Origin: Hymenobacter monticola
Lineage (GTDB): Bacteria; Bacteroidota; Bacteroidia; Cytophagales; Hymenobacteraceae
NCBI RefSeq assembly: GCF_022811645.1
Contig: NZ_CP094534.1
Location: 3,038,001 to 3,102,000 of the forward strand
Direction of reading: 5' to 3'
DNA length: 64,000 nt
Positions 34,843 through 44,725 of this stretch are shown here, in pieces (positions within the stretch are counted from its first letter, which is position 1; each line of letters opens with the position of its first letter). A model generated the notes under the pieces. The model searched no databases. It was not told the origin of the DNA and was given only the letters and a program-made list of their open reading frames with translations. Position numbers and translations under genes: made by a program.

Positions 34843-36135
34843 ATGGCAAACCGTAACAAACCCCTTTCGGCGGAAGCTTACCGCCGGAAACAGGCCGGTG
34901 CCGCCCTCGCGCGGCACGTCGACTGGCGCAATTGGCCCCAGTCCAAGCAAGTAGAATACATGTTTTCCTTCGGCTCGCCGCACGCACTGTACGAAGAATT
35001 GGGCGTCGATTCGGCCCTGGCGCAGCTTTATGCAGCGTGCGTGGCAGGCCGCACCGGACCGGAGCAGGGCAGCGCGCTCGGCGCCTTGCGGGCGCTGGCA
35101 ACCAAACGCACCGGCCTGCTGCACCGCCCCGAACTGGCCCCAAACGTGGCCGCGCTGGCCAGCCGCTACGCCAAGCGAGTGCGCGAAGTGGCCGACTGGA
35201 AACCCAGGAGCAACAACGTGTTCCGGCAACTGGCCAGCTTGGTTCGGCACTTGTTCGACCGATACGGCAACGCGCCGGACTGGCTGATTGAGTCCTGGAC
35301 GCGGCCAACGCTGGCCCAGGACGGCGTGTCCCTGCCCGATTTGACTTTGCACCTCGGGCAGGGACACTCGCTGCGCAGCTTCCCTCGGCTGCCCGTGCCC
35401 ATCAGCAAACGGCTGGAGCACGGCATGCGGGAAGCGCCCGCCGGTTGCACCTTCCGCGAAGCCCTGCGCTACGCCCAGCTCGCCGCCCGCGGCGCATTGG
35501 AGTGGTGGGGCGTGGTGATGGAGTCGCGCCTGGGCCGCGCGGCTTTGGTCGATGATGGCTTCTGGCTGAGCGTGGTGGACTTTTTCGTCGCTTCGCCCAT
35601 GGTCGACCCGCGCCATTTTGGCCCCGTCTGCGACTGGATTCATCAGAAGCGCAGTGTCGGCATCGGGCCCGAGCCAGCCCAGCCGGGCTTCACCCTCAAG
35701 GGCCGCAGCATGGCCTCCGTGCTGGCCCAAACCGAGCAGTGGCACAATGGCCAAGCCCGGACGCGTCGCCAATCGGGAGGCGCTAATGTGGCCAGCAGCT
35801 GGCCGGGCCTGCCGGTGGATAATTTTCTGGACGGCCCGGTGCGCATCGAACAGCTCACCACCGGCGCGCAGCTGCAGAAAGAGGGCAACGCGCAGCGCAA
35901 CTGCGTGGCCACCTACCTGCAATCGTGTCTGGCGGGCCGCTGCGGCATCTTTTCGCTGACCGTGGACGGCACCCGCGGCCTGACCATCGAGGTAAACGCC
36001 CACCGCACCGTGGTGCAGGTGCGCGGCCGCTACAACCGCTGGATGACGCCGCAGGAACACGCCTGGATAATCCAGTGGCTCAGCCAGTCCCGCCTGGTGC
36101 TGTCGAAGCACGTCGGCGTGGATTGGCAGGACTAA
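34843..36135 (+). CDS. PcfJ-like protein
   Basis: This 430-residue cytoplasmic protein has a C-terminal region (about 343-412) that matches the PcfJ-domain pattern: LQKEGNAQRNCVATY with the Asn/His-Cys-Val-x2-Tyr core, then CGIFSLTVDGTRGLTIEV and VVQVRGRYNRWMT. PcfJ was named from a conjugative plasmid; its biochemical activity is not established to my knowledge. The N-terminal two thirds is helical and basic without known motifs. It is the first gene of the island ahead of the Ro60-like protein, separated from it by a nested dyad repeat. A role in RNA handling is inferred from this context only. Confidence 0.7.
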   Translation: MANRNKPLSAEAYRRKQAGAALARHVDWRNWPQSKQVEYMFSFGSPHALYEELGVDSALAQLYAACVAGRTGPEQGSALGALRALATKRTGLLHRPELAPNVAALASRYAKRVREVADWKPRSNNVFRQLASLVRHLFDRYGNAPDWLIESWTRPTLAQDGVSLPDLTLHLGQGHSLRSFPRLPVPISKRLEHGMREAPAGCTFREALRYAQLAARGALEWWGVVMESRLGRAALVDDGFWLSVVDFFVASPMVDPRHFGPVCDWIHQKRSVGIGPEPAQPGFTLKGRSMASVLAQTEQWHNGQARTRRQSGGANVASSWPGLPVDNFLDGPVRIEQLTTGAQLQKEGNAQRNCVATYLQSCLAGRCGIFSLTVDGTRGLTIEVNAHRTVVQVRGRYNRWMTPQEHAWIIQWLSQSRLVLSKHVGVDWQD

Positions 36136-36145
36136 TGCGGGAAAT

Positions 36146-36321
36146 CTCACCCCCGGCCCCTCTCCCCAGGAGAGGGGAGCCTAACGATTTGTAGCGCGGA
36201 CTTTTAGTCCGCGAGCCTCTGAATTTTTAAAAGACGCATTTCACTCGCGGACTAAAAGTCCGCGCTACATCACCCACGCCGCTGTGGCTCCCCTCTCCTG
36301 GGGAGAGGGGCTGGGGGTGAG
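36146..36321. repeat. Nested double inverted repeat
   Basis: An outer pair of 36-base arms (36146-36181 and 36286-36321, one mismatch; contains CCCCTCTCCCCAGGAGAGGG) encloses an inner perfect 26-base pair (36190-36215 and 36244-36269; TGTAGCGCGGACTTTTAG). The inner element has the TGTAG/CTACA borders shared by other dyads in this window. It looks like one REP-like element inserted in another. Confidence 0.85.
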
Positions 36322-36369
36322 GTTCCGCCGGCTGCACCAATAGAAAAATCAACTCAAAATCCTACCACT

Positions 36370-37893
36370 ATGCGCTTCAACTTCTTCTCTCGAAATACCG
36401 CTCCGACGGTAAACCACGAAGGCGCACCCGCCTTCACGCTCACGCCGCAGGTGGAGCTGTACGCCGCCGTGGCCACCGCCGCGCTCAGCGACCAGTTCTA
36501 TGAAAAAGCCGACACCCGGCTGGCGCGTTTGCGCGAGTTGGTGGCGAAGAACGAGCCGCGGTTCGTGGCGCAGTTGGCGGTGTATGCCCGTGAGAGCCTG
36601 AACCTGCGCTCGGTGCCGCTGGTGCTGTGCGTGGAGCTGGCCCGCCTGCACCGCGGCGACAGCCTCGTGAGCCGCCTGGTGGCCCGCGTGGTGCAGCGCC
36701 CCGATGAAATCACGGAATTGCTGGCCTTCTACGCCCAAGCCAACGGCCGGAGCGGGACCAAAATCCTCAACCGCCTCTCCAAGCAGCTGCAAAAAGGCCT
36801 GGCGCTCAGCTTCAACCGTTTCGATGGCTACCAGCTGGCCAAGTACGACCGCGACGGGGCGGTGCGCCTACGCGATGCCCTCTTCCTCGTTCACCCGAAT
36901 GCGAAAGATGAGGCCCAGCAAGCCCTGTTCGACCAGTTGGTGCGCGGCGAATTGCCCACGCCCTACACTTGGGAAACCGAGCTGTCGGCGGTAGGGCAGG
37001 AGACCTTCGCCACCGAGGCGGACCAGCAAACGGCCGTCCGCCAGACCTGGGAAACGCTCATTGACAGCGGCAAGCTGGGTTACATGGCCTTGCTCCGTAA
37101 CCTGCGCAACATCATAGAAGCCAACGTTTCGGCTGCGGTGATTGAAAAAGTGTGCGACACGCTGGCCGACCGGTTTGCGGTGGCGCGCAGCAGGCAGTTG
37201 CCGTTCCGCTTCCTGGCCGCTTACCGTGAGGTGAAAGCCTTGCCAAGCGGCCACGTGGCCGGCGTGCTGGCGGCCCTGGAAACGGCCATTGCACACAGCG
37301 CCGTGAACCTGCGCGGTTTCGGGCACGACACCCGCGTGGTGCTGGCCTGCGACGTGTCGGGCTCGATGCAACAGCCCATTTCGGCCCGCAGCAAAGTGCT
37401 GCTCTACGACGTGGGCCTGGTGCTGAGCATGTTGCTGCAAAGCCGCTGCCAGAACGTGGTTACCGGCATGTTCGGCAACATCTGGAAGCGCATCAGCCTG
37501 CCCCGCGGCCCGGTGCTGCGCAACGTGGACGAGCTCTACCAGCGCGAAGGCGAGGTGGGCTACGCCACCAACGGCCACTTGGTGGTAGAGGAGCTGTTGT
37601 TGCGCCGAGAAGTGGTGGACAAGGTGATGATTTTCACCGACTGCCAGCTCTGGAACAGCACCGGCGACGGCGGGGTGTTCGGCCGCATCTGGGCCGACTA
37701 CCGCCGCACCGTGGCGCCCCACGCCCGCCTCTACCTCTTCGACCTGGCCGGGCACGGCACCGCCCCGCTGGAAGTGCGCCCCGAAACGGGCGTGGCCCTC
37801 CTCGCCGGCTGGTCCGACAAGGTGTTCGACGTGCTGAGCGCGCTGGACAACGGCGGCTCGGCGCTGACGGAAATCGAGAAAATTGAATTGTAA
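36370..37893 (+). CDS. rsr: TROVE-domain Ro60 orthologue (Rsr)
   Basis: This 507-residue protein is an RNA-binding ring of HEAT-like helices (TROVE module, residues about 20-310: FYEKADTRLARLRELVAKNEPRFVAQLAVYARE, LNRLSKQLQKGLALSFNRFDGYQLAKYDRDG). A von Willebrand A domain follows, with MIDAS motif DVSGSM at 328-333. Ro60 proteins bind Y RNAs on the outer surface and misfolded RNA ends in the ring. Bacterial Rsr works with exoribonucleases in Deinococcus and lies beside rtcBA in Salmonella. Here two Y RNA genes follow directly and five more lie downstream. Length and domain order are typical. Confidence 0.93.
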   Translation: MRFNFFSRNTAPTVNHEGAPAFTLTPQVELYAAVATAALSDQFYEKADTRLARLRELVAKNEPRFVAQLAVYARESLNLRSVPLVLCVELARLHRGDSLVSRLVARVVQRPDEITELLAFYAQANGRSGTKILNRLSKQLQKGLALSFNRFDGYQLAKYDRDGAVRLRDALFLVHPNAKDEAQQALFDQLVRGELPTPYTWETELSAVGQETFATEADQQTAVRQTWETLIDSGKLGYMALLRNLRNIIEANVSAAVIEKVCDTLADRFAVARSRQLPFRFLAAYREVKALPSGHVAGVLAALETAIAHSAVNLRGFGHDTRVVLACDVSGSMQQPISARSKVLLYDVGLVLSMLLQSRCQNVVTGMFGNIWKRISLPRGPVLRNVDELYQREGEVGYATNGHLVVEELLLRREVVDKVMIFTDCQLWNSTGDGGVFGRIWADYRRTVAPHARLYLFDLAGHGTAPLEVRPETGVALLAGWSDKVFDVLSALDNGGSALTEIEKIEL

Positions 37894-37937: not shown

Positions 37938-37947
37938 CCTCAGAAAT

Positions 37948-38060
37948 AAAACCGGCGCCGTAGCTGCGCCCTACTTCGTCCTGAAAACACGCTAGAAGCT
38001 TAAGTGCTTCGCTGTGCCTTGGGCACAGTACCGTGGGTGCCGCGACAGTTGCCCGGTTTT
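37948..38060 (+). ncRNA. Y RNA 1 (no tRNA-like domain)
   Basis: Perfect outer stem AAAACCGG/CCGGTTTT (37948-37955 with 38053-38060). The internal loop has GGCGCCGTAG on the 5' strand and ACAGTTGCCC on the 3' strand. The inner stem is GCTGCGCCC/GGGTGCCGC (37963-37971 with 38035-38043, one mismatch) and the ACTTCG motif follows it. The apical part folds into two simple hairpins, GAAGC-GCTTC and CTGTGCC-TTG-GGCACAG, with no T-loop. It lies directly downstream of rsr, like bacterial Y RNA genes. The call rests on the core shared by all seven elements. Confidence 0.8.
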
Positions 38061-38068
38061 AGCTGCCT

Positions 38069-38210
38069 CCGGTTGGGTGCCGTAGGCAGGCGCTACTTCG
38101 TGGTAAAGTTCTCGGTTGAAATACGTTTCATCTCGCGGGTTCGAATCCCGTTTCCGCTTCGGGCGGAAGACGAAAACATTGCGCCTGTCGCTTGTTGCCC
38201 CAACCTTTTT
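38069..38210 (+). ncRNA. Y RNA 2 with T-arm and capped acceptor-like stem
   Basis: Outer stem GGTTGGG/CCCAACC (38071-38077 with 38199-38205) followed by five T. The internal loop is GGGTGCCGTAG opposite CTTGTTGCCCC. The inner stem is GCAGGCGC/GCGCCTGT and the ACTTCG motif is present. The apical module has a canonical T-arm CGGG-TTCGAAT-CCCG (38136-38150). It is followed at once by the stem TTCCGC/GCGGAA capped by a short loop, as in a tRNA acceptor whose ends are joined. No D-arm consensus was found. It starts 10 bases after Y RNA 1. Confidence 0.82.
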
Positions 38211-38236
38211 AGCTGCTGAAAAGCAGGTTAATAAAC

Positions 38237-38287
38237 CCCGGGAATAATATTCTTCAACAATAAAGCGGCCGTTATTCCCGGGCCGCT
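38237..38287 (+). promoter_or_regulatory. Mutually exclusive hairpins upstream of the PARG gene
   Basis: Stem A pairs CCCGGGAATAA (38237-38247) with TTATTCCCGGG (38272-38282). Stem B pairs AGCGGCC (38264-38270) with GGCCGCT (38281-38287). They compete for 38281-38282 and cross each other, so this 5' leader could switch between two shapes before the ATG at 38313. Confidence 0.45.
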
Positions 38288-38312
38288 GCCCACTAAGCTC
38301 TACCCTTTTGCC

Positions 38313-39170
38313 ATGACGCCTAATACCATCAACCGCGACGTTCGCACCCGCATTGCCCTCAGCACGCTGGCCGCGCTGGAGCAGGGCGGCTACCAAACCG
38401 CCGCCGGCCAGCCGGTTTCCCTGGCGGCCAGCCAGAAAGCCGCCGAAACCGGCAGCCGCCTCTACCGCCCCGCCGATGCCGAAAGTCTCCTAAAGGAGTT
38501 CGACCAGCCCGGTGGCGCCCCGGCTGCAGTGCGCGTGTACCACGCCACCACGCTGGAGGCGGCGGCCGCTTTGGTAGCTGATGGCGGCCGGATGGGCTGC
38601 CTGAACTTCGCCTCGGCGCGCAACCCGGGCGGCGGTTTCCTGGGCGGCAGCCAGGCGCAGGAGGAAAGCCTGGCGCGGTCGTCAGGCCTGTACCCGTGCC
38701 TGCTGCAGTTCCGGGAGATGTACTCGTACAACGCCCGGCCCGACAGCACGGCCCTCTACAGCGACTACTTCAGCTATGCGCCGGGCGTGCCGGTGTTTCG
38801 CGGCGAAGCAGGGGAGTGGCTGCCCGAGCCGTTTCTATTGGACATCATCACGGCGCCGGCCGTGAACGCCGGGGCGCTGCAACGCAACAACCCGGAACTG
38901 CTGCCCGAACTGGTGCCCACCATGCGCCGGCGTACTCGCCTGGTGCTGGCCGCGGCCGCCCGCCACGGCATCGACCACCTGATTCTCGGGGCCTGGGGCT
39001 GCGGCGTGTTTGGCAACGACCCGGCCCAGATTGCCGAGCTGTTTGCCGAAGTGCTGGCCGAGCCCAACATCCGGGGCCGGTTCCGCCGGCTCGATTTTGC
39101 GGTGTTCGACCCGAAGCCGCCGCAAGCCACGCTGCAAACCTTCGAACGCATACTAAAACCACTTTTCTAA
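38313..39170 (+). CDS. Bacterial PARG-type macrodomain hydrolase
   Basis: The 285-residue protein is of the TIGR02452 type. It carries the poly(ADP-ribose) glycohydrolase signature GGGFLGGSQAQEE (106-118), in which the second Glu of the QEE is the catalytic residue in characterised PARGs. NFASARNPGG precedes it, and HLILGAWGCGVFGNDP is typical of the C-terminal macrodomain half. It would remove ADP-ribose from protein or, given this island, from RNA ends; the RNA role is inference. It lies between two groups of Y RNA genes and starts at the ATG at 38313 after a structured leader. Confidence 0.88.
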   Translation: MTPNTINRDVRTRIALSTLAALEQGGYQTAAGQPVSLAASQKAAETGSRLYRPADAESLLKEFDQPGGAPAAVRVYHATTLEAAAALVADGGRMGCLNFASARNPGGGFLGGSQAQEESLARSSGLYPCLLQFREMYSYNARPDSTALYSDYFSYAPGVPVFRGEAGEWLPEPFLLDIITAPAVNAGALQRNNPELLPELVPTMRRRTRLVLAAAARHGIDHLILGAWGCGVFGNDPAQIAELFAEVLAEPNIRGRFRRLDFAVFDPKPPQATLQTFERILKPLF

Positions 39171-39191
39171 CCGTTTAACCCTTAATTCTAC

Positions 39192-39276
39192 TTGCCGACA
39201 TGAGGAAGACGGCTGCCCACTTGGGGCAGTCGCCGACCGGGACGGCGCCACTGCGTGTGCCGTCCCAACCCGGCAG
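39192..39276 (+). ncRNA. Three-way structured element ahead of Y RNA 3
   Basis: A closing pairing TTGCCG/CGGCAG is possible. It encloses hairpin GGCTGCCC-x5-GGGCAGTC and the perfect hairpin GGGACGGC-x12-GCCGTCCC. It lacks the Y-core motifs. It could be a separate small RNA, a processing signal, or the remnant of another member of the array. Confidence 0.4.
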
Positions 39277-39285
39277 AATCCGCAT

Positions 39286-39418
39286 GGTTCGGGTGCCGTA
39301 GGCGGGCGTTACTTCGCTTGGTGAAAGAAGGGCCCTTCGGGACCTTTCTCGGGTTCGATTCCCCCTCCGTAGCCCCGGCTGCGGTTGACACGCCTGCCGC
39401 TTTTTGCCCCGAATTTCC
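39286..39418 (+). ncRNA. Y RNA 3 with T-loop and 7-bp capped acceptor stem
   Basis: Outer stem TTCGGG/CCCGAA (39288-39293 with 39408-39413). The 5' loop is GGGTGCCGTAG and the 3' loop is CCGCTTTTTGCCCC. The inner stem is GGCGGGCG/CGCCTGCC and the ACTTCG motif is present. The apical module has GGG-TTCGATT-CCC (39351-39363) and, after three bases, a stem of seven pairs CCGTAGC/GCTGCGG (39367-39384) capped by CCCG. Seven pairs is the length of a tRNA acceptor stem. The D-arm is missing or reduced. Confidence 0.82.
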
Positions 39419-39438
39419 GGACAAAGCCGGGTGAAATA

Positions 39439-39484
39439 TGTTTCCGGACGGGTGCCATAGCAGGGCCTTTCTTATCTGGAAACA
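39439..39484 (+). ncRNA. Truncated Y-like hairpin
   Basis: A 46-base hairpin with perfect stem TGTTTCC/GGAAACA contains GGGTGCCATAG, one base off the 5' Y-core motif, but no 3' partner motif. It is probably a degenerate or minimal copy between Y RNAs 3 and 4. Confidence 0.4.
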
Positions 39485-39490
39485 AAAGCT

Positions 39491-39646
39491 TGCATTGGGT
39501 GCCGTAGGCGAGTGTTCCTTCGTTTATGTTGTTCCAATTGGAATCGGGGGTTCGAATCCCTCCTTCAGCTGGCAATGGCTGAGGTGGCTGAGTGGTCGAA
39601 AGCGCAATACCGTTCTAGTCACTCGCCGCTTTTTTGCCCCAATGCA
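39491..39646 (+). ncRNA. Y RNA 4 with permuted tRNA-Ser/Leu-like domain
   Basis: Perfect outer stem TGCATTGGG/CCCAATGCA (39491-39499 with 39638-39646). Core loops are GGGTGCCGTAG and CGCTTTTTTGCCCC. The inner stem GGCGAGTG/CACTCGCC is perfect. The apical domain reads, in order: T-arm GGGGG-TTCGAAT-CCCTCC (around 39546-39563), 7-bp acceptor CTTCAGC/GCTGAGG (39563-39569 with 39578-39584) capped by eight bases, then TGGCTGAGTGGTCGAAAGCGC (39585-39605 region), the D-arm style of class II tRNAs. Order T-arm, acceptor, D-arm is the reverse of a tRNA gene, so the Y stem stands where the anticodon arm would be. Confidence 0.88.
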
Positions 39647-39652
39647 TTGATT

Positions 39653-39814
39653 TCAACTCCTGTCCGGGTGTCGTAGCCCGGCCATACTTCGCACCCTTAA
39701 TGCCCAGGTCGCGGGTTCGAACCCCGCCGGAAGCCATCCAAAGACGGTTGCCGTAGCTCAGTTGATAGAGCAGGACTAGAAGGCCGGGCGTTTGTTGCCC
39801 CGGGCAGGGATTGA
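39653..39814 (+). ncRNA. Y RNA 5 with permuted tRNA-like domain
   Basis: A long outer stem runs from TCAACTCCTGTCCGGG (39653-39668) to CCCGGGCAGGGATTGA (39799-39814), followed by a T-run. Core loops are GGGTGTCGTAG and GTTTGTTGCCCC. The inner stem GCCCGGCC/GGCCGGGC is perfect and the ACTTCG motif is present. The apical domain has a perfect T-arm GCGGG-TTCGAAC-CCCGC (39711-39727), acceptor-like CGGAAGCC/GGTTGCCG (one mismatch, capped by ten bases), TA, and a perfect D-arm GCTC-AGTTGATA-GAGC (39756-39771). AGGTC before the T-arm looks like a tRNA variable loop. Confidence 0.9.
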
Positions 39815-39818
39815 TTTT

Positions 39819-39921
39819 TGTGTAGAGACGCGACACTTCGCGTCTTGGCGTCCGTGCCGTTCGCCGGTCAGTTCGCCCAAATCGTTCAGCGTGGAGACAC
39901 GAAGTGTCGCGTCTCCACACA
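39819..39921. repeat. REP-like dyad between Y RNAs 5 and 6
   Basis: Arms 39819-39840 (TGTGTAGAGACGCGACAC...) and 39900-39921 match at 21 of 22 positions as complements. Each arm can also form its own small hairpin. The left border carries the GTAG end common to several dyads here. It interrupts the Y RNA array and may be a later insertion. Confidence 0.8.
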
Positions 39922-39927
39922 CCTCAC

Positions 39928-40013
39928 GGCCGGATGCCGTAGTCTTGCGCTACTTCGACCTGTCACGTCGGCCCCTGGGCCAATACGCAGGACGCCTGTT
40001 GCTCCGGTTTTTT
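39928..40013 (+). ncRNA. Y RNA 6 (short form)
   Basis: Outer stem GGCCGGA/TCCGGTT (39928-39934 with 40003-40009) is followed by T. Core loops are GGATGCCGTAG and GCCTGTTGCTCC. The inner stem is GTCTTGCG/CGCAGGAC (one G-U) and the ACTTCG motif is present. The apical part is a single small hairpin GGCC-CCT-GGGCC with no tRNA-like features. At 86 bases it is the smallest complete member and resembles Y RNA 1. Confidence 0.8.
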
Positions 40014-40020
40014 CTGAATT

Positions 40021-40166
40021 AAAACGGGCTGGTGCCGTAGCACCGCCTTACTTCGTTAGGGACGATGGGGTCGCCGGTTCGATTCCGGCTCGTGGGTTCC
40101 GGCCCATGGTAGCTCAGTTGGTAGAGCACACATGCAGGCGTTGCGCCTTGTTGCCCGGTCCGTTTT
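40021..40166 (+). ncRNA. Y RNA 7 with complete permuted tRNA-like domain
   Basis: Outer stem AAAACGGGCTGG/CCGGTCCGTTTT (40021-40032 with 40155-40166, wobble pairs only). Core loops are TGGTGCCGTAG and CTTGTTGCCCG. The inner stem is GCACCGCC/GGCGTTGC (one mismatch) and the ACTTCG motif is present. The apical domain has a perfect T-arm GCCGG-TTCGATT-CCGGC (40073-40089), seven-pair acceptor TCGTGGG/CCCATGG (40090-40096 with 40103-40109) capped by six bases, TA, and a perfect D-arm GCTC-AGTTGGTA-GAGC (40112-40127). Only the anticodon arm is absent, replaced by the Y stem. The RtcB start lies 67 bases on. Confidence 0.92.
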
Positions 40167-40233: not shown

Positions 40234-41634
40234 ATGGCCAATTCATTACGCGGCAACGACCTCCGAAACCTCGGTTTCCCCGAAGGTCGGGCCATCGGGC
40301 TCGCGCTGGCTCAATTGCAGCGCAAGCACCTCAAAAAACTCTCCCAAACCGACCAGCTGGCCTTGCTAGGTCAGCTCTTAGCCAATCCCAACGACTACCT
40401 CATGCACCTCGATTGGAGCCACACGGCCGCGGCCCTGCTGCCCCCGCCTAACCGCCACATCGGCCTGGTCGAGCGCAAAGACTACGCTGTGTTCGGGGCC
40501 GAGCATATCGACCCCAGCGCCATCCACCAAATGGAAACGGCCATGAAACTGCCCGTGACCGTGGCCGGCGCGCTCATGCCCGACGCCCACCACGGCTACG
40601 GCCTGCCCATCGGCGGCGTGCTGGCCACGGACAACGCCGTGATTCCCTATGCCGTGGGCGTTGACATTGGCTGCCGTATGGCGCTGTCGGTGTTCGATTT
40701 ACCGCCCAAGTACCTCACGCAGCGCACCCAGGAGTTGCGCAGCCTGCTGCTCGAAAACACCCGTTTCGGCAGCGGCCGGGGCTGGGAGCGGGGCCAGCGC
40801 CTCGACCACGCCGTGCTCGACCGGCCCGAGTTTCAGGAAATTCCTTTCCTGCGCAACAAGCTCGACAAAGCTGCCGAGCAAGTGGGGACTTCCGGCTCCG
40901 GCAACCACTTCGTGGAGTTCGGCATTGTCGAAATCACCGAAGCGGAAAACGAGCTGGGTGTGCCCGTGGGCCAGTACCTGGGCGTGCTCTCGCACTCCGG
41001 CTCGCGGGGCCTGGGCGCGGGCATTGCCGAGCGCTACACCAAGCTCGCTAAGGACGTGTGCCAGCTGCCCGGCGAAGCCCAGCACCTCGCCTGGCTCGGC
41101 CTCGACACCGAAGCCGGCCAGGAATACTGGGCCGCCATGACGCTGGCCGGCGACTACGCCTCGGCCTGCCACGAGCAGATTCACCGTCGCCTGGCCAAAG
41201 CCCTCGGCGAGAAGCCCCTGGCGAAGGTGGAAAACCACCACAACTTCGCCTGGAAAGAACGCCTGGCCGATGGCCGCGAGGTTATCACCCACCGCAAGGG
41301 GGCCACGCCGGCCGGCGCGGGCGTGCTCGGCATCATTCCCGGCTCGATGACGGCCCCCGGCTTCATCGTGCGCGGCCGGGGCGTGGCCGAGTCGCTGGCT
41401 TCGGCTTCGCACGGGGCCGGGCGGCTGATGTCGCGCACCCGGGCCAAGGCCGAATTGGGCGAAGGCCAGGTGCGCAAGTACCTCGCCGAGCACGGCATCG
41501 AGCTCATCGGCGGCGGGCTGGATGAGGCCCCGCAGGCCTACAAGGACATCCGCGCCGTGATGGCCAGCCAGCGCGAGCTGGTGGATGTGCTGGGCTCCTT
41601 CACGCCGAAAATCGTGCGCATGGACGGGGCGTGA
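40234..41634 (+). CDS. rtcB: RNA 3'-phosphate/5'-OH ligase RtcB (copy 1)
   Basis: The product is 466 residues. RtcB joins RNA 2',3'-cyclic phosphate or 3'-phosphate ends to 5'-OH ends with GTP and manganese, repairing cut tRNA and other RNA. Metal- and GMP-binding features are visible: Cys147 in DIGCRM, SGNHFVEFG, HSGSRGLG, GSMTAPGFIVRGRG, and the histidine that carries GMP, His393 in SHGAGR. The ATG at 40234 gives MANSLRGNDL, matching the start of copy 2; longer starts would run into Y RNA 7. It follows the Y RNA array and is followed by a terminator. No RtcA or RtcR is present in the window. Confidence 0.95.
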   Translation: MANSLRGNDLRNLGFPEGRAIGLALAQLQRKHLKKLSQTDQLALLGQLLANPNDYLMHLDWSHTAAALLPPPNRHIGLVERKDYAVFGAEHIDPSAIHQMETAMKLPVTVAGALMPDAHHGYGLPIGGVLATDNAVIPYAVGVDIGCRMALSVFDLPPKYLTQRTQELRSLLLENTRFGSGRGWERGQRLDHAVLDRPEFQEIPFLRNKLDKAAEQVGTSGSGNHFVEFGIVEITEAENELGVPVGQYLGVLSHSGSRGLGAGIAERYTKLAKDVCQLPGEAQHLAWLGLDTEAGQEYWAAMTLAGDYASACHEQIHRRLAKALGEKPLAKVENHHNFAWKERLADGREVITHRKGATPAGAGVLGIIPGSMTAPGFIVRGRGVAESLASASHGAGRLMSRTRAKAELGEGQVRKYLAEHGIELIGGGLDEAPQAYKDIRAVMASQRELVDVLGSFTPKIVRMDGA

Positions 41635-43324: not shown

Positions 43325-44725
43325 ATGGCAAACCAACTTCGCGGCAACGACCTCCGCAAAATCGGCTTCCCCGAAGGCCCGGCCATCAACCGCGCCCTCA
43401 ATGTGCTGGCTCAAAAGGAATTTAAAAAGATGGACAAAGGGAGCGCCCTGGCCCTGCTCAAGCAAATCAAGGACGACCCGTTCAAGTACGTGCGCGATGA
43501 AAACTGGCGCCCGGTGGCCGAGCAACTAGTGCCCCAGCCCAGCCGCGACGTGGCCCTGAACCCCGCCATCAAAGACTACCGCCGCTACGGCAACGACTTC
43601 ATCGAGGACGGCGCCCGGCGGCAGATGGACGTGGCCATGCAGCTGCCCATCACCCTCGACGGCGCGCTCATGCCCGATGCCCACCAGGGCTACGGCCTGC
43701 CCATTGGTGGGGTGCTGGCGGCCGACAACGCCGTAATTCCCTACGGCGTGGGCATGGACATTGGCTGCCGCATGGCGCTGTCGGTGTTCGAGCTGCCGCC
43801 CAAGTACTTGGAGCAGCGCCGCGACGAGCTGCGCAAGCTGCTGCTGCACCACACCAAGTTCGGCAACAAGGAGGTCTTCAAAAAGGTGAATATGGACGAC
43901 CCCATTTTCGACCGGCCAGAATTCCGGGAAATTGCCGTGGCGCGCCAGAAGCGCGAGTCGGCCGTGAAGCAGCTGGGCTCCTCCGGCTCCGGCAACCACT
44001 TCGTGGAGTTCGGCCTGGTAGATATTACCGAGGTAAAAAACGACCTGGGCCTACCCGTGGGACAGTATATGGGTGTGCTTTCGCACAGCGGCTCGCGCGG
44101 CCTGGGTGCGGCCATTGCGCAACACTACACCAAAGTGGCCATGGACAAGTGCCCGCTGCCGCATGAGGCGCGGCACCTGGCCTGGCTCTCGCTCGACTCG
44201 CAGGAGGGGCAGGAGTACTGGGCCGCCATGAATCTGGCCGGCGACTACGCCTCGGCCTGCCACCACGACATTCACCGCCGCCTCAGCCAGGCGCTGGGCG
44301 AGAAGCCACTGGCGCAGGTCGAAAACCACCACAACTTTGCCTGGAAGGAAGTGCTGGCCGACGGCCGCACGGCCATCGTACACCGCAAGGGCGCCACGCC
44401 GGCCGGCGCGGGTGTGCTGGGCATCATCCCCGGCTCGATGACGGCCCCCGGCTTCATTGTGCGCGGCCGGGGCGAGCGGGAGTCGCTCAACTCGGCTTCG
44501 CACGGGGCCGGGCGGCGCCTCTCGCGCACGCAGGCCAAGGCCAAAATCACCGAAGGCGAATTACGCCGCGAGCTGCGCGACCACGGCGTGGACCTCATGG
44601 GCGGCGGCCTCGACGAAGCGCCCGCCGCTTACAAAGACATCCGGCAGGTGATGGCCCACCAGCAGGATTTGGTGGACGTGTTGGGCTCCTTCACTCCCAA
44701 AATAGTGCGCATGGATGGCGCCTAA
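43325..44725 (+). CDS. rtcB: RNA 3'-phosphate/5'-OH ligase RtcB (copy 2)
   Basis: This 466-residue second RtcB is closely similar to copy 1 throughout (both end GSFTPKIVRMDGA). The same active-site features are seen: Cys148 in DIGCRM, SGNHFVEFG, HSGSRGLG, and His393 in SHGAGR. Differences concentrate in the N-terminal 120 residues and the segment after DEL(R)KLLL, where copy 2 has an added charged loop (NKEVFKKVNMDD). Both copies look intact, so division of labour by RNA end or by expression is likelier than decay. It is followed by a structured element and terminator. Confidence 0.95.
   Translation: MANQLRGNDLRKIGFPEGPAINRALNVLAQKEFKKMDKGSALALLKQIKDDPFKYVRDENWRPVAEQLVPQPSRDVALNPAIKDYRRYGNDFIEDGARRQMDVAMQLPITLDGALMPDAHQGYGLPIGGVLAADNAVIPYGVGMDIGCRMALSVFELPPKYLEQRRDELRKLLLHHTKFGNKEVFKKVNMDDPIFDRPEFREIAVARQKRESAVKQLGSSGSGNHFVEFGLVDITEVKNDLGLPVGQYMGVLSHSGSRGLGAAIAQHYTKVAMDKCPLPHEARHLAWLSLDSQEGQEYWAAMNLAGDYASACHHDIHRRLSQALGEKPLAQVENHHNFAWKEVLADGRTAIVHRKGATPAGAGVLGIIPGSMTAPGFIVRGRGERESLNSASHGAGRRLSRTQAKAKITEGELRRELRDHGVDLMGGGLDEAPAAYKDIRQVMAHQQDLVDVLGSFTPKIVRMDGA

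What the first reader, a model, noticed from the sequence alone, without database searches (positions are those of the whole stretch)
37948..40166. Seven clustered bacterial Y RNA genes next to the Ro60 (rsr) gene
Seven non-coding elements on the plus strand share one architecture. An outer stem of 5-16 pairs leads to an asymmetric internal loop with GGGUGCCGUAG on the 5' side and UUGUUGCCCC on the 3' side. An inner stem of 8-9 pairs follows, then an ACUUCG motif and a variable apical module; several end in T-runs. This is the layout of Ro60-binding Y RNAs, and they flank rsr, the Ro60 orthologue. Outer and inner stems differ in sequence between copies while pairing is kept, which is strong covariation evidence. 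Best-studied bacteria have one or two Y RNAs, so an array of seven is unusual.
Basis: partly seen in the sequence, partly recalled or inferred. Interest (0 to 1): 0.95.

Follow-up and report, generated by a model that had tools for sequence, protein, structure and literature searches.

The report
Y RNA array with tRNA mimics
A Hymenobacter-like bacterium carries seven small RNA elements beside its Ro60 gene; they are predicted to bind the Ro60 protein, and two of them spell out a tRNA cloverleaf in rearranged order, with an anticodon-type loop, which would let the protein catch enzymes that act on tRNAs.

Summary
Seven elements, all on the + strand downstream of rsr, share one chassis: outer stem, UGCCGUAG / UUGUUGCCC internal loop, inner stem, YACUUCG. 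Covariance models find these seven and nothing comparable in the window (46.9-139.9 bits, next 20.1). Covariation is strong. In 150 family genomes the model hits all 65 with near-full-length Rsr, one with Rsr fragments, and none of 81 without Rsr. Seven is not unusual: 49 related loci carry 3-9.

Y6 and Y8 are whole cloverleaves, circularly permuted: opened between nt 28 and 29 of the anticodon stem, closed by a loop at the acceptor end, with an anticodon-type loop. Y7 carries the exact tRNA-Asp anticodon loop. Y5 has a tRNA-Ser-type cap, replaced in relatives by a tRNA-Leu-type cap on the same chassis. Y1-Y3 are not cloverleaves. Similar arrays occur in phages.

Best reading: Rsr-bound tRNA-shaped handles beside the RNA ligase RtcB, possibly baits for anticodon nucleases. 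Expression and Rsr binding are untested. A new variant of bacterial Y RNA.

The parts
36370..37893 (+). rsr, Ro60 orthologue (TROVE protein)
   Evidence: Pfam PF05731, 104.9 bits; 96% identical to the Hymenobacter properus record; aligns over residues 12-497 with PDB 9l5y/9kop, E 6.5e-28
37947..38063 (+). Y1 (class L): Y chassis with a cap without T or D arm
   Evidence: R2 46.9 bits; R1 33.5 bits; score 52.2
38069..38209 (+). Y2 (class B): chassis, hairpin in the variable region, T-arm, acceptor hairpin, no D-arm; T-run follows
   Evidence: R2 52.2 bits; R3 77.2 bits; T-arm and acceptor parsed; hairpin
38313..39170 (+). Microbial-type PARG gene inside the array
   Evidence: PF10021 145.6 bits; found in 22 of 49 related loci
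39285..39418 (+). Y3 (class B): chassis with a T-loop-like motif on a weak 3-bp stem; in relatives (L082, L083, L087) class B elements carry a 5-bp tRNA-Asn anticodon arm
   Evidence: R2 47.4 bits; R3 63.6 bits; fold
39440..39484 (+). Remnant of an eighth element (class D): 5' side up to the ACUUC position and the 3' end of the outer stem are left; cap, 3' inner strand and 3' loop are missing
   Evidence: sequence, compared with class D and its 3' flank in L085 and L087; not counted by the scan
39491..39648 (+). Y5 (class E): tRNA-Ser-type cap (variable-arm hairpin, T-arm, acceptor hairpin, Ser-type D-arm); the same slot holds a Leu-type cap in L082, L086, L087 and L127
   Evidence: R3 145.8 bits, in its training set; R2 71.8 bits; isotype score Ser 35 against 21 for the next amino acid
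39660..39809 (+). Y6 (class A): circularly permuted tRNA cloverleaf, opened between nt 28 and 29; pseudo-anticodon loop 39694-39700 (CCCUUAA; CUUUUAA, the tRNA-Lys loop, in many relatives)
   Evidence: R2 139.9 bits, in its training set; R3 84.4 bits; rotated cap called tRNA-Lys(CTT) by ARAGORN
39819..39921 (.). 27-nt inverted repeat between Y6 and Y7
39926..40013 (+). Y7 (class C): cap is an anticodon-arm hairpin, UCGAC-CUGUCAC-GUCGG, loop 39960-39966 identical to the host tRNA-Asp(GUC) loop, then a second hairpin; no T-arm; T-run follows
   Evidence: R1 101.3 bits, in its training set; R2 48 bits
40024..40165 (+). Y8 (class A): circularly permuted tRNA cloverleaf; pseudo-anticodon loop 40056-40062 (UUAGGGA, Pro-like)
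   Evidence: R2 126.4 bits, in its training set; R3 78.4 bits; rotated cap called tRNA-Pro(AGG) by ARAGORN
40234..41634 (+). RtcB RNA ligase directly downstream of the array
   Evidence: PF01139 272.9 bits; downstream of rsr on the same strand in 49 of 49 Hymenobacter-type loci
43325..44725 (+). second RtcB paralogue
   Evidence: PF01139 281.8 bits
34843..36135 (+). PcfJ-like gene upstream of rsr
   Evidence: PF14284 46.9 bits; found in 29 of 49 related loci

Best explanation
The locus encodes seven Y RNA-like elements on one shared chassis that is predicted to hold the neighbouring Rsr (Ro60) protein, and their interchangeable caps, of which two are circularly permuted tRNA cloverleaves, one is tRNA-Ser-like and one bears a tRNA-Asp anticodon loop, would serve as tRNA-shaped handles that bring tRNA-acting enzymes to Rsr beside the RNA ligase RtcB. 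Shown by sequence and statistics: the chassis, its covariation, the co-occurrence with rsr, the permuted cloverleaf with an anticodon stem closed across the insertion point, and cap exchange on one chassis. Inferred: transcription with rsr and rtcB, binding of Rsr to the chassis (as published for other bacterial Y RNAs), recognition of the caps by tRNA-binding proteins (PNPase, tRNA-modifying enzymes, anticodon nucleases), and cooperation with RtcB.
For: Chassis: seven hits clear of background in the window and none elsewhere in the genome above 30 bits. Covariation: 30 of 36 pairs changed on both sides in 35 class E/G/H elements, 23 of 33 in 83 class A elements, 12 of 20 in 37 class C elements. 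Link to rsr: 65 of 65 genomes with near-full-length Rsr and 0 of 81 without a match. RtcB downstream in 49 of 49 loci. Cloverleaf: a 7-nt-loop hairpin exactly 15 nt before the T loop in 66 of 88 class A elements with a T-arm (5.3 expected; 1 at 14 nt, 0 at 16 nt), U33 in 62 and purine 37 in 63 of the 66; nt 27-28 pair with nt 42-43 in 62 of 65 (36.6 with partners swapped), in 13 of 13 in other Bacteroidota (3.1) and 5 of 5 in phages (2.6); rotated caps called tRNA by ARAGORN in 63 of 65. Isotypes: class E Ser 14 of 14, G Leu 10 of 10 parsed, H Leu 7 of 7 parsed. Cap swap: chassis identity 0.93 and cap identity 0.61 between Leu and Ser holders, against 0.92 and 0.82 within a type, with at least 6 switches on an rsr+rtcB tree. 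Published precedent: Y RNA ties Rsr to PNPase (PMC7790460, PMC8394870; passages).
Against: No expression or binding data. The chassis differs from the Rfam YrlA stem, and RF02553 reaches only 31.5 and 29.6 bits against a gathering score of 69. The genome has no match to the RtcR and RtcA families, so the Salmonella regulation cannot apply as such. Four of the seven caps (Y1, Y2, Y3, Y7) are not cloverleaves. Only 13 of 54 T-arm elements in other Bacteroidota and 5 of 16 in phages carry the anticodon hairpin; in Hymenobacter class D (3 of 18) and F (5 of 13) the hairpins found lack U33, and for F swapped partners pair as well (4 of 5 against 4.0). Class A also shows other 7-nt-loop hairpins, at 10 nt (33) and 8 nt (24) before the T loop. 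Pseudo-anticodons drift (22 kinds in 63), so no single tRNA is copied strictly, and Y6 of the window lacks U33. The ARAGORN control with mismatched halves is also high (37.5 of 65). The variable-arm statistic is weak.
Confidence: 0.6

Rival explanations
1. Bait or sensor panel: the caps present anticodon loops and tRNA shapes on Rsr to draw anticodon nucleases, and the neighbouring RtcB reseals the cut baits.
For: U33 and purine 37 are kept while anticodons drift; anticodon-type loops in Y6, Y7 and Y8; RtcB adjacent in 49 of 49 loci; Leu and Ser caps are exchanged; PMC7790460 (passages) suggests that YrlA's tRNA-like domain, which the anticodon nuclease does not cut, could act as its competitive inhibitor; some phage elements have the same architecture.
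Against: No nuclease was identified in this host (not searched for). None of the 35 Ser/Leu caps (classes E, G, H) holds a host anticodon loop. Cleavage and resealing are untested.
Confidence: 0.2
2. Ordinary tether and gate only: the caps all bind PNPase, as in the RYPER complex, and their variety is neutral drift after duplication.
For: The only published mechanism that I saw (PMC8394870 and PMC7790460, passages); arrays arise easily by tandem duplication.
Against: Anticodon-stem pairing and U33/R37 are kept through compensatory change, and the Ser/Leu slot changes between two long-variable-arm isotypes, which drift does not predict.
Confidence: 0.15
3. Permuted tRNA genes: the chassis is cut off and RtcB joins nt 28 to nt 29, giving usable tRNAs.
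For: Order (3' half before 5' half) and the break at 28/29 with an adjacent RtcB are what such a gene would need.
Against: Anticodons drift between orthologues, one read as Stop(tta) by ARAGORN; the commonest class A acceptor loops are short (AAG, UUCG) without CCA; the host has 45 tRNA matches of its own.
Confidence: 0.03
4. Decaying tRNA-derived repeats without function.
For: One remnant element (39440-39484) and drifting anticodons.
Against: Covariation in chassis, acceptor and anticodon stems and co-occurrence with rsr.
Confidence: 0.02

Closest known systems
YrlA / bacterial Y RNAs (Rfam RF02553; described from Deinococcus, Salmonella, Mycobacterium)
   Same: Encoded beside rsr; ends pair into a stem with an asymmetric internal loop; tRNA-like module in the order T-arm, acceptor hairpin, D-arm; about 90-160 nt.
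   Different: Chassis motif UGCCGUAG and an inner stem plus YACUUCG; RF02553 scores below threshold. Y6/Y8 add an anticodon arm, closed by 27:43 and 28:42, for which the RF02553 structure line shows no hairpin. 3-9 copies per locus with exchangeable Ser, Leu and class I caps.
rsr-yrlBA-rtcBA RNA repair operon of Salmonella (PMC7790460, passages read)
   Same: rsr, then Y RNAs, then rtcB on one strand.
   Different: No RtcA and no RtcR family match in the genome; two RtcB genes; PARG and PcfJ-like genes; seven Y RNA-like elements instead of two.
Phage TROVE loci (Caulobacter phage CcrColossus, Xanthomonas phage 10KY502B, Brevundimonas phage Gurke)
   Same: Arrays of R2-positive elements next to the TROVE gene, with YACUUC or a close variant, class I caps and, in CcrColossus, a Ser-type and a Leu-type cap.
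   Different: Another chassis motif (UGGCGUAG / UUCCCC in CcrColossus); Rsr identity 28-39% in the 25 of 94 phage records listed; some elements are annotated as tRNAs.

Membership tests
bacterial Y RNA (broad sense) | encoded near a Ro60 orthologue | tested here: met
   rsr at 36370-37893; co-occurrence 65 of 65 against 0 of 81
bacterial Y RNA (broad sense) | 5' and 3' ends pair into a conserved stem with internal loop | tested here: met
bacterial Y RNA (broad sense) | at least one copy with T, acceptor and D arms | tested here: met
   Y5, Y6, Y8
bacterial Y RNA (broad sense) | bound by Rsr in the cell | not testable with these tools
   needs pull-down or CLIP
Rfam RF02553 YrlA | covariance score at or above gathering (69 bits) | tested here: not met
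   31.5 and 29.6 bits in the window; no match over the cut-off in the genome
rsr-yrl-rtcBA RNA repair operon | RtcB downstream on the same strand | tested here: met
rsr-yrl-rtcBA RNA repair operon | RtcA cyclase and RtcR activator in the genome | tested here: not met
   (the E. coli control rings in both)
RYPER (Rsr-Y RNA-PNPase) | cap binds PNPase | not testable with these tools
   needs biochemistry
tRNA gene | called as tRNA in genomic order | tested here: not met
   ARAGORN and gathering-threshold Rfam call none of the seven in the window; rotated Y6 and Y8 are called

The most novel reading that the evidence does not exclude
The array is a panel of mendable molecular baits: Ro60 rings display whole-tRNA copies with anticodon loops, so that anticodon nucleases of phages, rivals or toxin systems cut the baits instead of, or before, the tRNAs, and the adjacent RtcB reseals them; cap swapping follows an arms race, and phages carry the same panels against the host.
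Probability: 0.18. Interest if true: 0.93.

Novelty: new variant of a known kind. Interest (0 to 1): 0.74.

Why it matters
What the caps of bacterial Y RNAs are for is open; in the passages that I could read only a PNPase tether is described as shown. A natural series of 3-9 Y RNAs per locus, on one chassis, with caps that copy tRNA-Ser, tRNA-Leu, class I tRNAs and isolated anticodon arms, turns that into a comparative experiment. The permuted cloverleaf with an anticodon loop makes a concrete prediction, recognition by anticodon-loop enzymes, that the RF02553 shape does not make. The R2 model also scores higher than RF02553 on the same phage elements (for example 94.4 against 46.7 and 94.2 against 38.8 bits) and may recover Y RNAs that annotation pipelines call tRNAs.

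Tried and rejected
Rfam at gathering threshold finds only the tRNA-Lys gene in the window. In evalue mode YrlA appears only at Y6 and Y8, below threshold. ARAGORN finds no tRNA in the array, although it of 94 padded class A elements of the set in genomic order. A Bacteroidota-type promoter pattern (recalled) gives 3 matches in the window, none near the array. The variable-arm test is only suggestive (hairpins of 4 bp or more: class E 14 of 14 against 6.1 expected, G 10 of 11 against 5.7, H 5 of 7 against 3.3, A 49 of 88 against 37.5). Best-isotype assignment for class A is scattered over 12 amino acids, so no single tRNA is claimed for Y6 or Y8. Some of the exact anticodon-loop matches in class A (Pro and others) may be chance. 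T-runs do not follow most elements (class C 21 of 37, B 13 of 51, A 20 of 94), so separate terminators are not claimed. Phylum-wide counts with R2 (46 of 296 genomes) scored only 10 candidates per genome, and many of the matches are partial (such as model 33-118), probably neighbouring tRNA genes, so they are not used as array counts.

Papers: Chen 2013, Chen 2014, Wang 2018, Sim and Wolin 2018 and Burroughs and Aravind 2016 are not held; what I say of them is recalled or comes from passages of other papers. Passages only were seen of PMC7790460, PMC8394870, PMC12282133, PMC4726728, PMC8058203, PMC7824862 and PMC11090510. I therefore cannot exclude that multi-copy arrays or anticodon arms in Y RNAs are in print. 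Searches returned no paper; the listings of searches (8 papers; 8 of 124 shown) show no title that describes it.


Full report
What is there. The window lies in a 6.12-Mb genome (G000:C1:3038001-3102000); its Rsr is 96% identical to that of a Hymenobacter properus record. On the + strand stand a PcfJ-like gene, rsr (TROVE), Y1, Y2, a PARG-type gene, Y3, a remnant, Y5, Y6, Y7, Y8, rtcB, a C1 peptidase gene and a second rtcB. I number the remnant as the fourth element, so the seven intact ones are Y1-Y3 and Y5-Y8.

Is it real? A scan with the two loop motifs and two stems gives seven places at 52-81 in the window, the next at 38.9. Over 80 Rsr loci it gives 364 places on the rsr strand and 2 on the other strand at a score of 40 or more; its weights were learned from these loci, window included. 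Covariance models are less circular: R2 was built from class A elements (of the window only Y6 and Y8), yet it finds Y1, Y2, Y3, Y5 and Y7 at 46.9-71.8 bits with the next match at 20.1; R1, built from class C (of the window only Y7), lists all seven and nothing else. R2 finds no other place above 30 bits in the genome; the six weaker matches overlap tRNA genes (150 of 4768 candidates scored).

Covariation. Class E/G/H (35 sequences): 89.5% of cells paired, 30 of 36 pairs with changes on both sides, covariation score 0.596 against 0.215 in shuffles and at most 0.147 when slid. Class A (83): 96.0%, 23 of 33 pairs, 0.569 against 0.165 and at most 0.127. Class C (37): 92.5%, 12 of 20 pairs, 0.343 against 0.141. 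Y8 orthologues alone (16): 6 of 36 pairs, a number that 12 of 500 shuffles reach, because they are similar. Shuffles do not remove relatedness; the slid controls keep it.

Link to rsr. Of 150 family genomes 69 have an Rsr match; in four of them only fragments (G031, G036, G060, G087), and two of the other 65 hold stop codons in the frame. R2 at E 1e-8 or better hits 66 of 150: those 65 and G036 (the same handles as far as both lists show, 20 candidates scored per genome). None of the 81 genomes without an Rsr match is hit.

How unusual is seven? In the 49 Hymenobacter-type loci (48 Hymenobacter, one Solirubrum) the counts are 3 (2 loci), 4 (5), 5 (9), 6 (12), 7 (15), 8 (5) and 9 (1). In the 31 other loci, one of them a further Hymenobacter (L132), R3 at E 1e-5 or better gives 111 matches, all on the rsr strand, two of them partial, 1-8 per locus, median 4. 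Arrays are the rule in this part of the Bacteroidota.

The caps: classes. Unsupervised clustering of 304 elements gives recurrent classes in a largely conserved order. Scored against the host's own tRNAs outside the acceptor stem, class E is nearest tRNA-Ser in 14 of 14, class G tRNA-Leu in 10 of 10 parsed (11 in all), class H tRNA-Leu in 7 of 7 parsed (10 in all); class A is scattered, Lys leading with 20 of 87 parsed (94 in all). In the window Y5 is the Ser type.

The caps: exchange. The slot of Y5 holds Ser in the window and L084, L085, L097 and L126, and Leu in L082, L086, L087 and L127, with nearly the same outer stem and flanks. Between types the chassis is 0.93 identical and the cap 0.61; within a type 0.92 and 0.82 (20 and 16 pairs). 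On an rsr+rtcB tree of 50 loci at least six Leu/Ser switches are needed among the 26 loci that hold either in the place just before the first class A element; the window (Ser) and L082 (Leu) are sisters. Outside the window's clade that place need not be the same slot, and recombination of rsr and rtcB themselves could inflate the count. By a strict motif none of the 111 elements in the other 31 loci is of Ser or Leu type, but Caulobacter phage CcrColossus has one of each.

The caps: a whole tRNA, permuted. In class A (Y6, Y8) a hairpin with a 7-nt loop ends exactly 15 nt before the T loop, the spacing of a class I tRNA, in 66 of 88 elements with a T-arm (94 in all); 5.3 are expected from shuffles, and 1 and 0 are seen at 14 and 16 nt, though other hairpins appear at 10 nt (33) and 8 nt (24). 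U33 is present in 62, a purine at 37 in 63, both in 59; 27 loops equal a host anticodon loop (0.015 expected). The three local pairs occur as GCA/UGC (35), UCG/CGA (16), CGA/UCG (7), GCG/CGC (6) and UCG/CGG (2). The two remaining anticodon-stem pairs join the two sides of the insertion: nt 27-28 after the D-stem pair with nt 42-43 in 62 of 65 (GG/CC 44, CA/UG 16), against 36.6 with partners swapped. In other Bacteroidota 13 of 54 elements with a T-arm have the hairpin, and all 13 keep both pairs in seven combinations (3.1 expected); in phages 5 of 16, all 5 (2.6 expected). Hymenobacter classes D and F do not show it: 3 of 18 and 5 of 13 have a hairpin there, none with U33. So in class A the RNA is a cloverleaf opened between nt 28 and 29, where the Y chassis is inserted, and closed by a loop at the acceptor end. 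Put back in tRNA order, 63 of 65 caps are called tRNAs by ARAGORN: Y6 Lys(CTT), Y8 Pro(AGG). The control with halves of different elements gives 37.5, so this check is weak alone; of four phage caps parsed, three are called.

Y7 and class B. Class C caps (Y7) hold a solitary anticodon arm, in 20 of 37 exactly the tRNA-Asp(GUC) loop. Five of 51 class B elements, among them L082, L083 and L087, carry a tRNA-Asn loop. Over all 304 elements 71 hold an exact host anticodon loop in a hairpin of 3 bp or more against 2.5 expected; related elements are counted many times, so the number of independent cases is a handful.

How it likely works. Published work: Rsr binds the Y stem, the cap tethers PNPase, the tRNA-like domain is modified by DusA and TruB (PMC8394870, PMC7790460; passages). 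By analogy each chassis here would hold Rsr, and each cap would present a tRNA surface. Keeping anticodon-loop geometry (U33, R37, stem) while the anticodon drifts suggests recognition of the loop's shape. The acceptor end is closed, so charging is not expected. RtcB next door joins ends with cyclic phosphate, the kind that such nucleases leave; a cut bait could be resealed. This last step is inference only.

Known and new. These RNAs are Y RNAs in the broad sense, not members of Rfam RF02553 as it stands (31.5 and 29.6 bits against 69). New as far as my searches go (the main Y RNA papers were not held): arrays of 3-9, the anticodon arm with the 28/29 opening, and exchange of isotype caps.

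Noticed in passing
L174:1839-2948 (Caulobacter phage CcrColossus), L173:2368-2963 (Xanthomonas phage 10KY502B), L176:2334-2940 (Brevundimonas phage Gurke): Phage TROVE genes are preceded by 6, 3 and 4 full-length R2 matches; genes annotated tRNA-Gln (L174 2161-2228), tRNA-Thr (L173 2831-2898) and tRNA-Ser (L176 2802-2876) overlap them and look like misannotated Y RNAs.
   Followed up: partly
window 39819-39921 and 36143-36324: Inverted repeats (27-nt arms between Y6 and Y7; nested 39- and 26-nt arms between the PcfJ-like gene and rsr), possibly mobile intergenic palindromes.
   Followed up: partly
window 34843-36135 and 38313-39170: PcfJ-like and PARG-type genes recur in 29 and 22 of 49 related loci, on the rsr strand wherever found, some inside the Y array; their role is unknown.
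   Followed up: partly
window 40234-41634 and 43325-44725: Two RtcB paralogues (cross-matches of about 63-68% identity in related loci) with a C1-type cysteine protease gene between them; no RtcA or RtcR family match in the genome.
   Followed up: partly
304 Hymenobacter-type elements and 111 elsewhere, motif YACUUC after the inner stem: [AC]CUUC is found just after the inner stem in 274 of 304 elements, and [AC]CUYC in the first 75 nt of 103 of 111 elsewhere; its role, protein contact or part of the pseudo-anticodon stem, is unclear.
   Followed up: partly
G146:C16:76779-78185: One relative has a second, distant TROVE protein (36% identity) on another contig.
   Followed up: no
G036:C30:92209-92507: A relative with only Rsr fragments still has one R2 match at E 4.7e-9, a possible stage of locus loss.
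   Followed up: no
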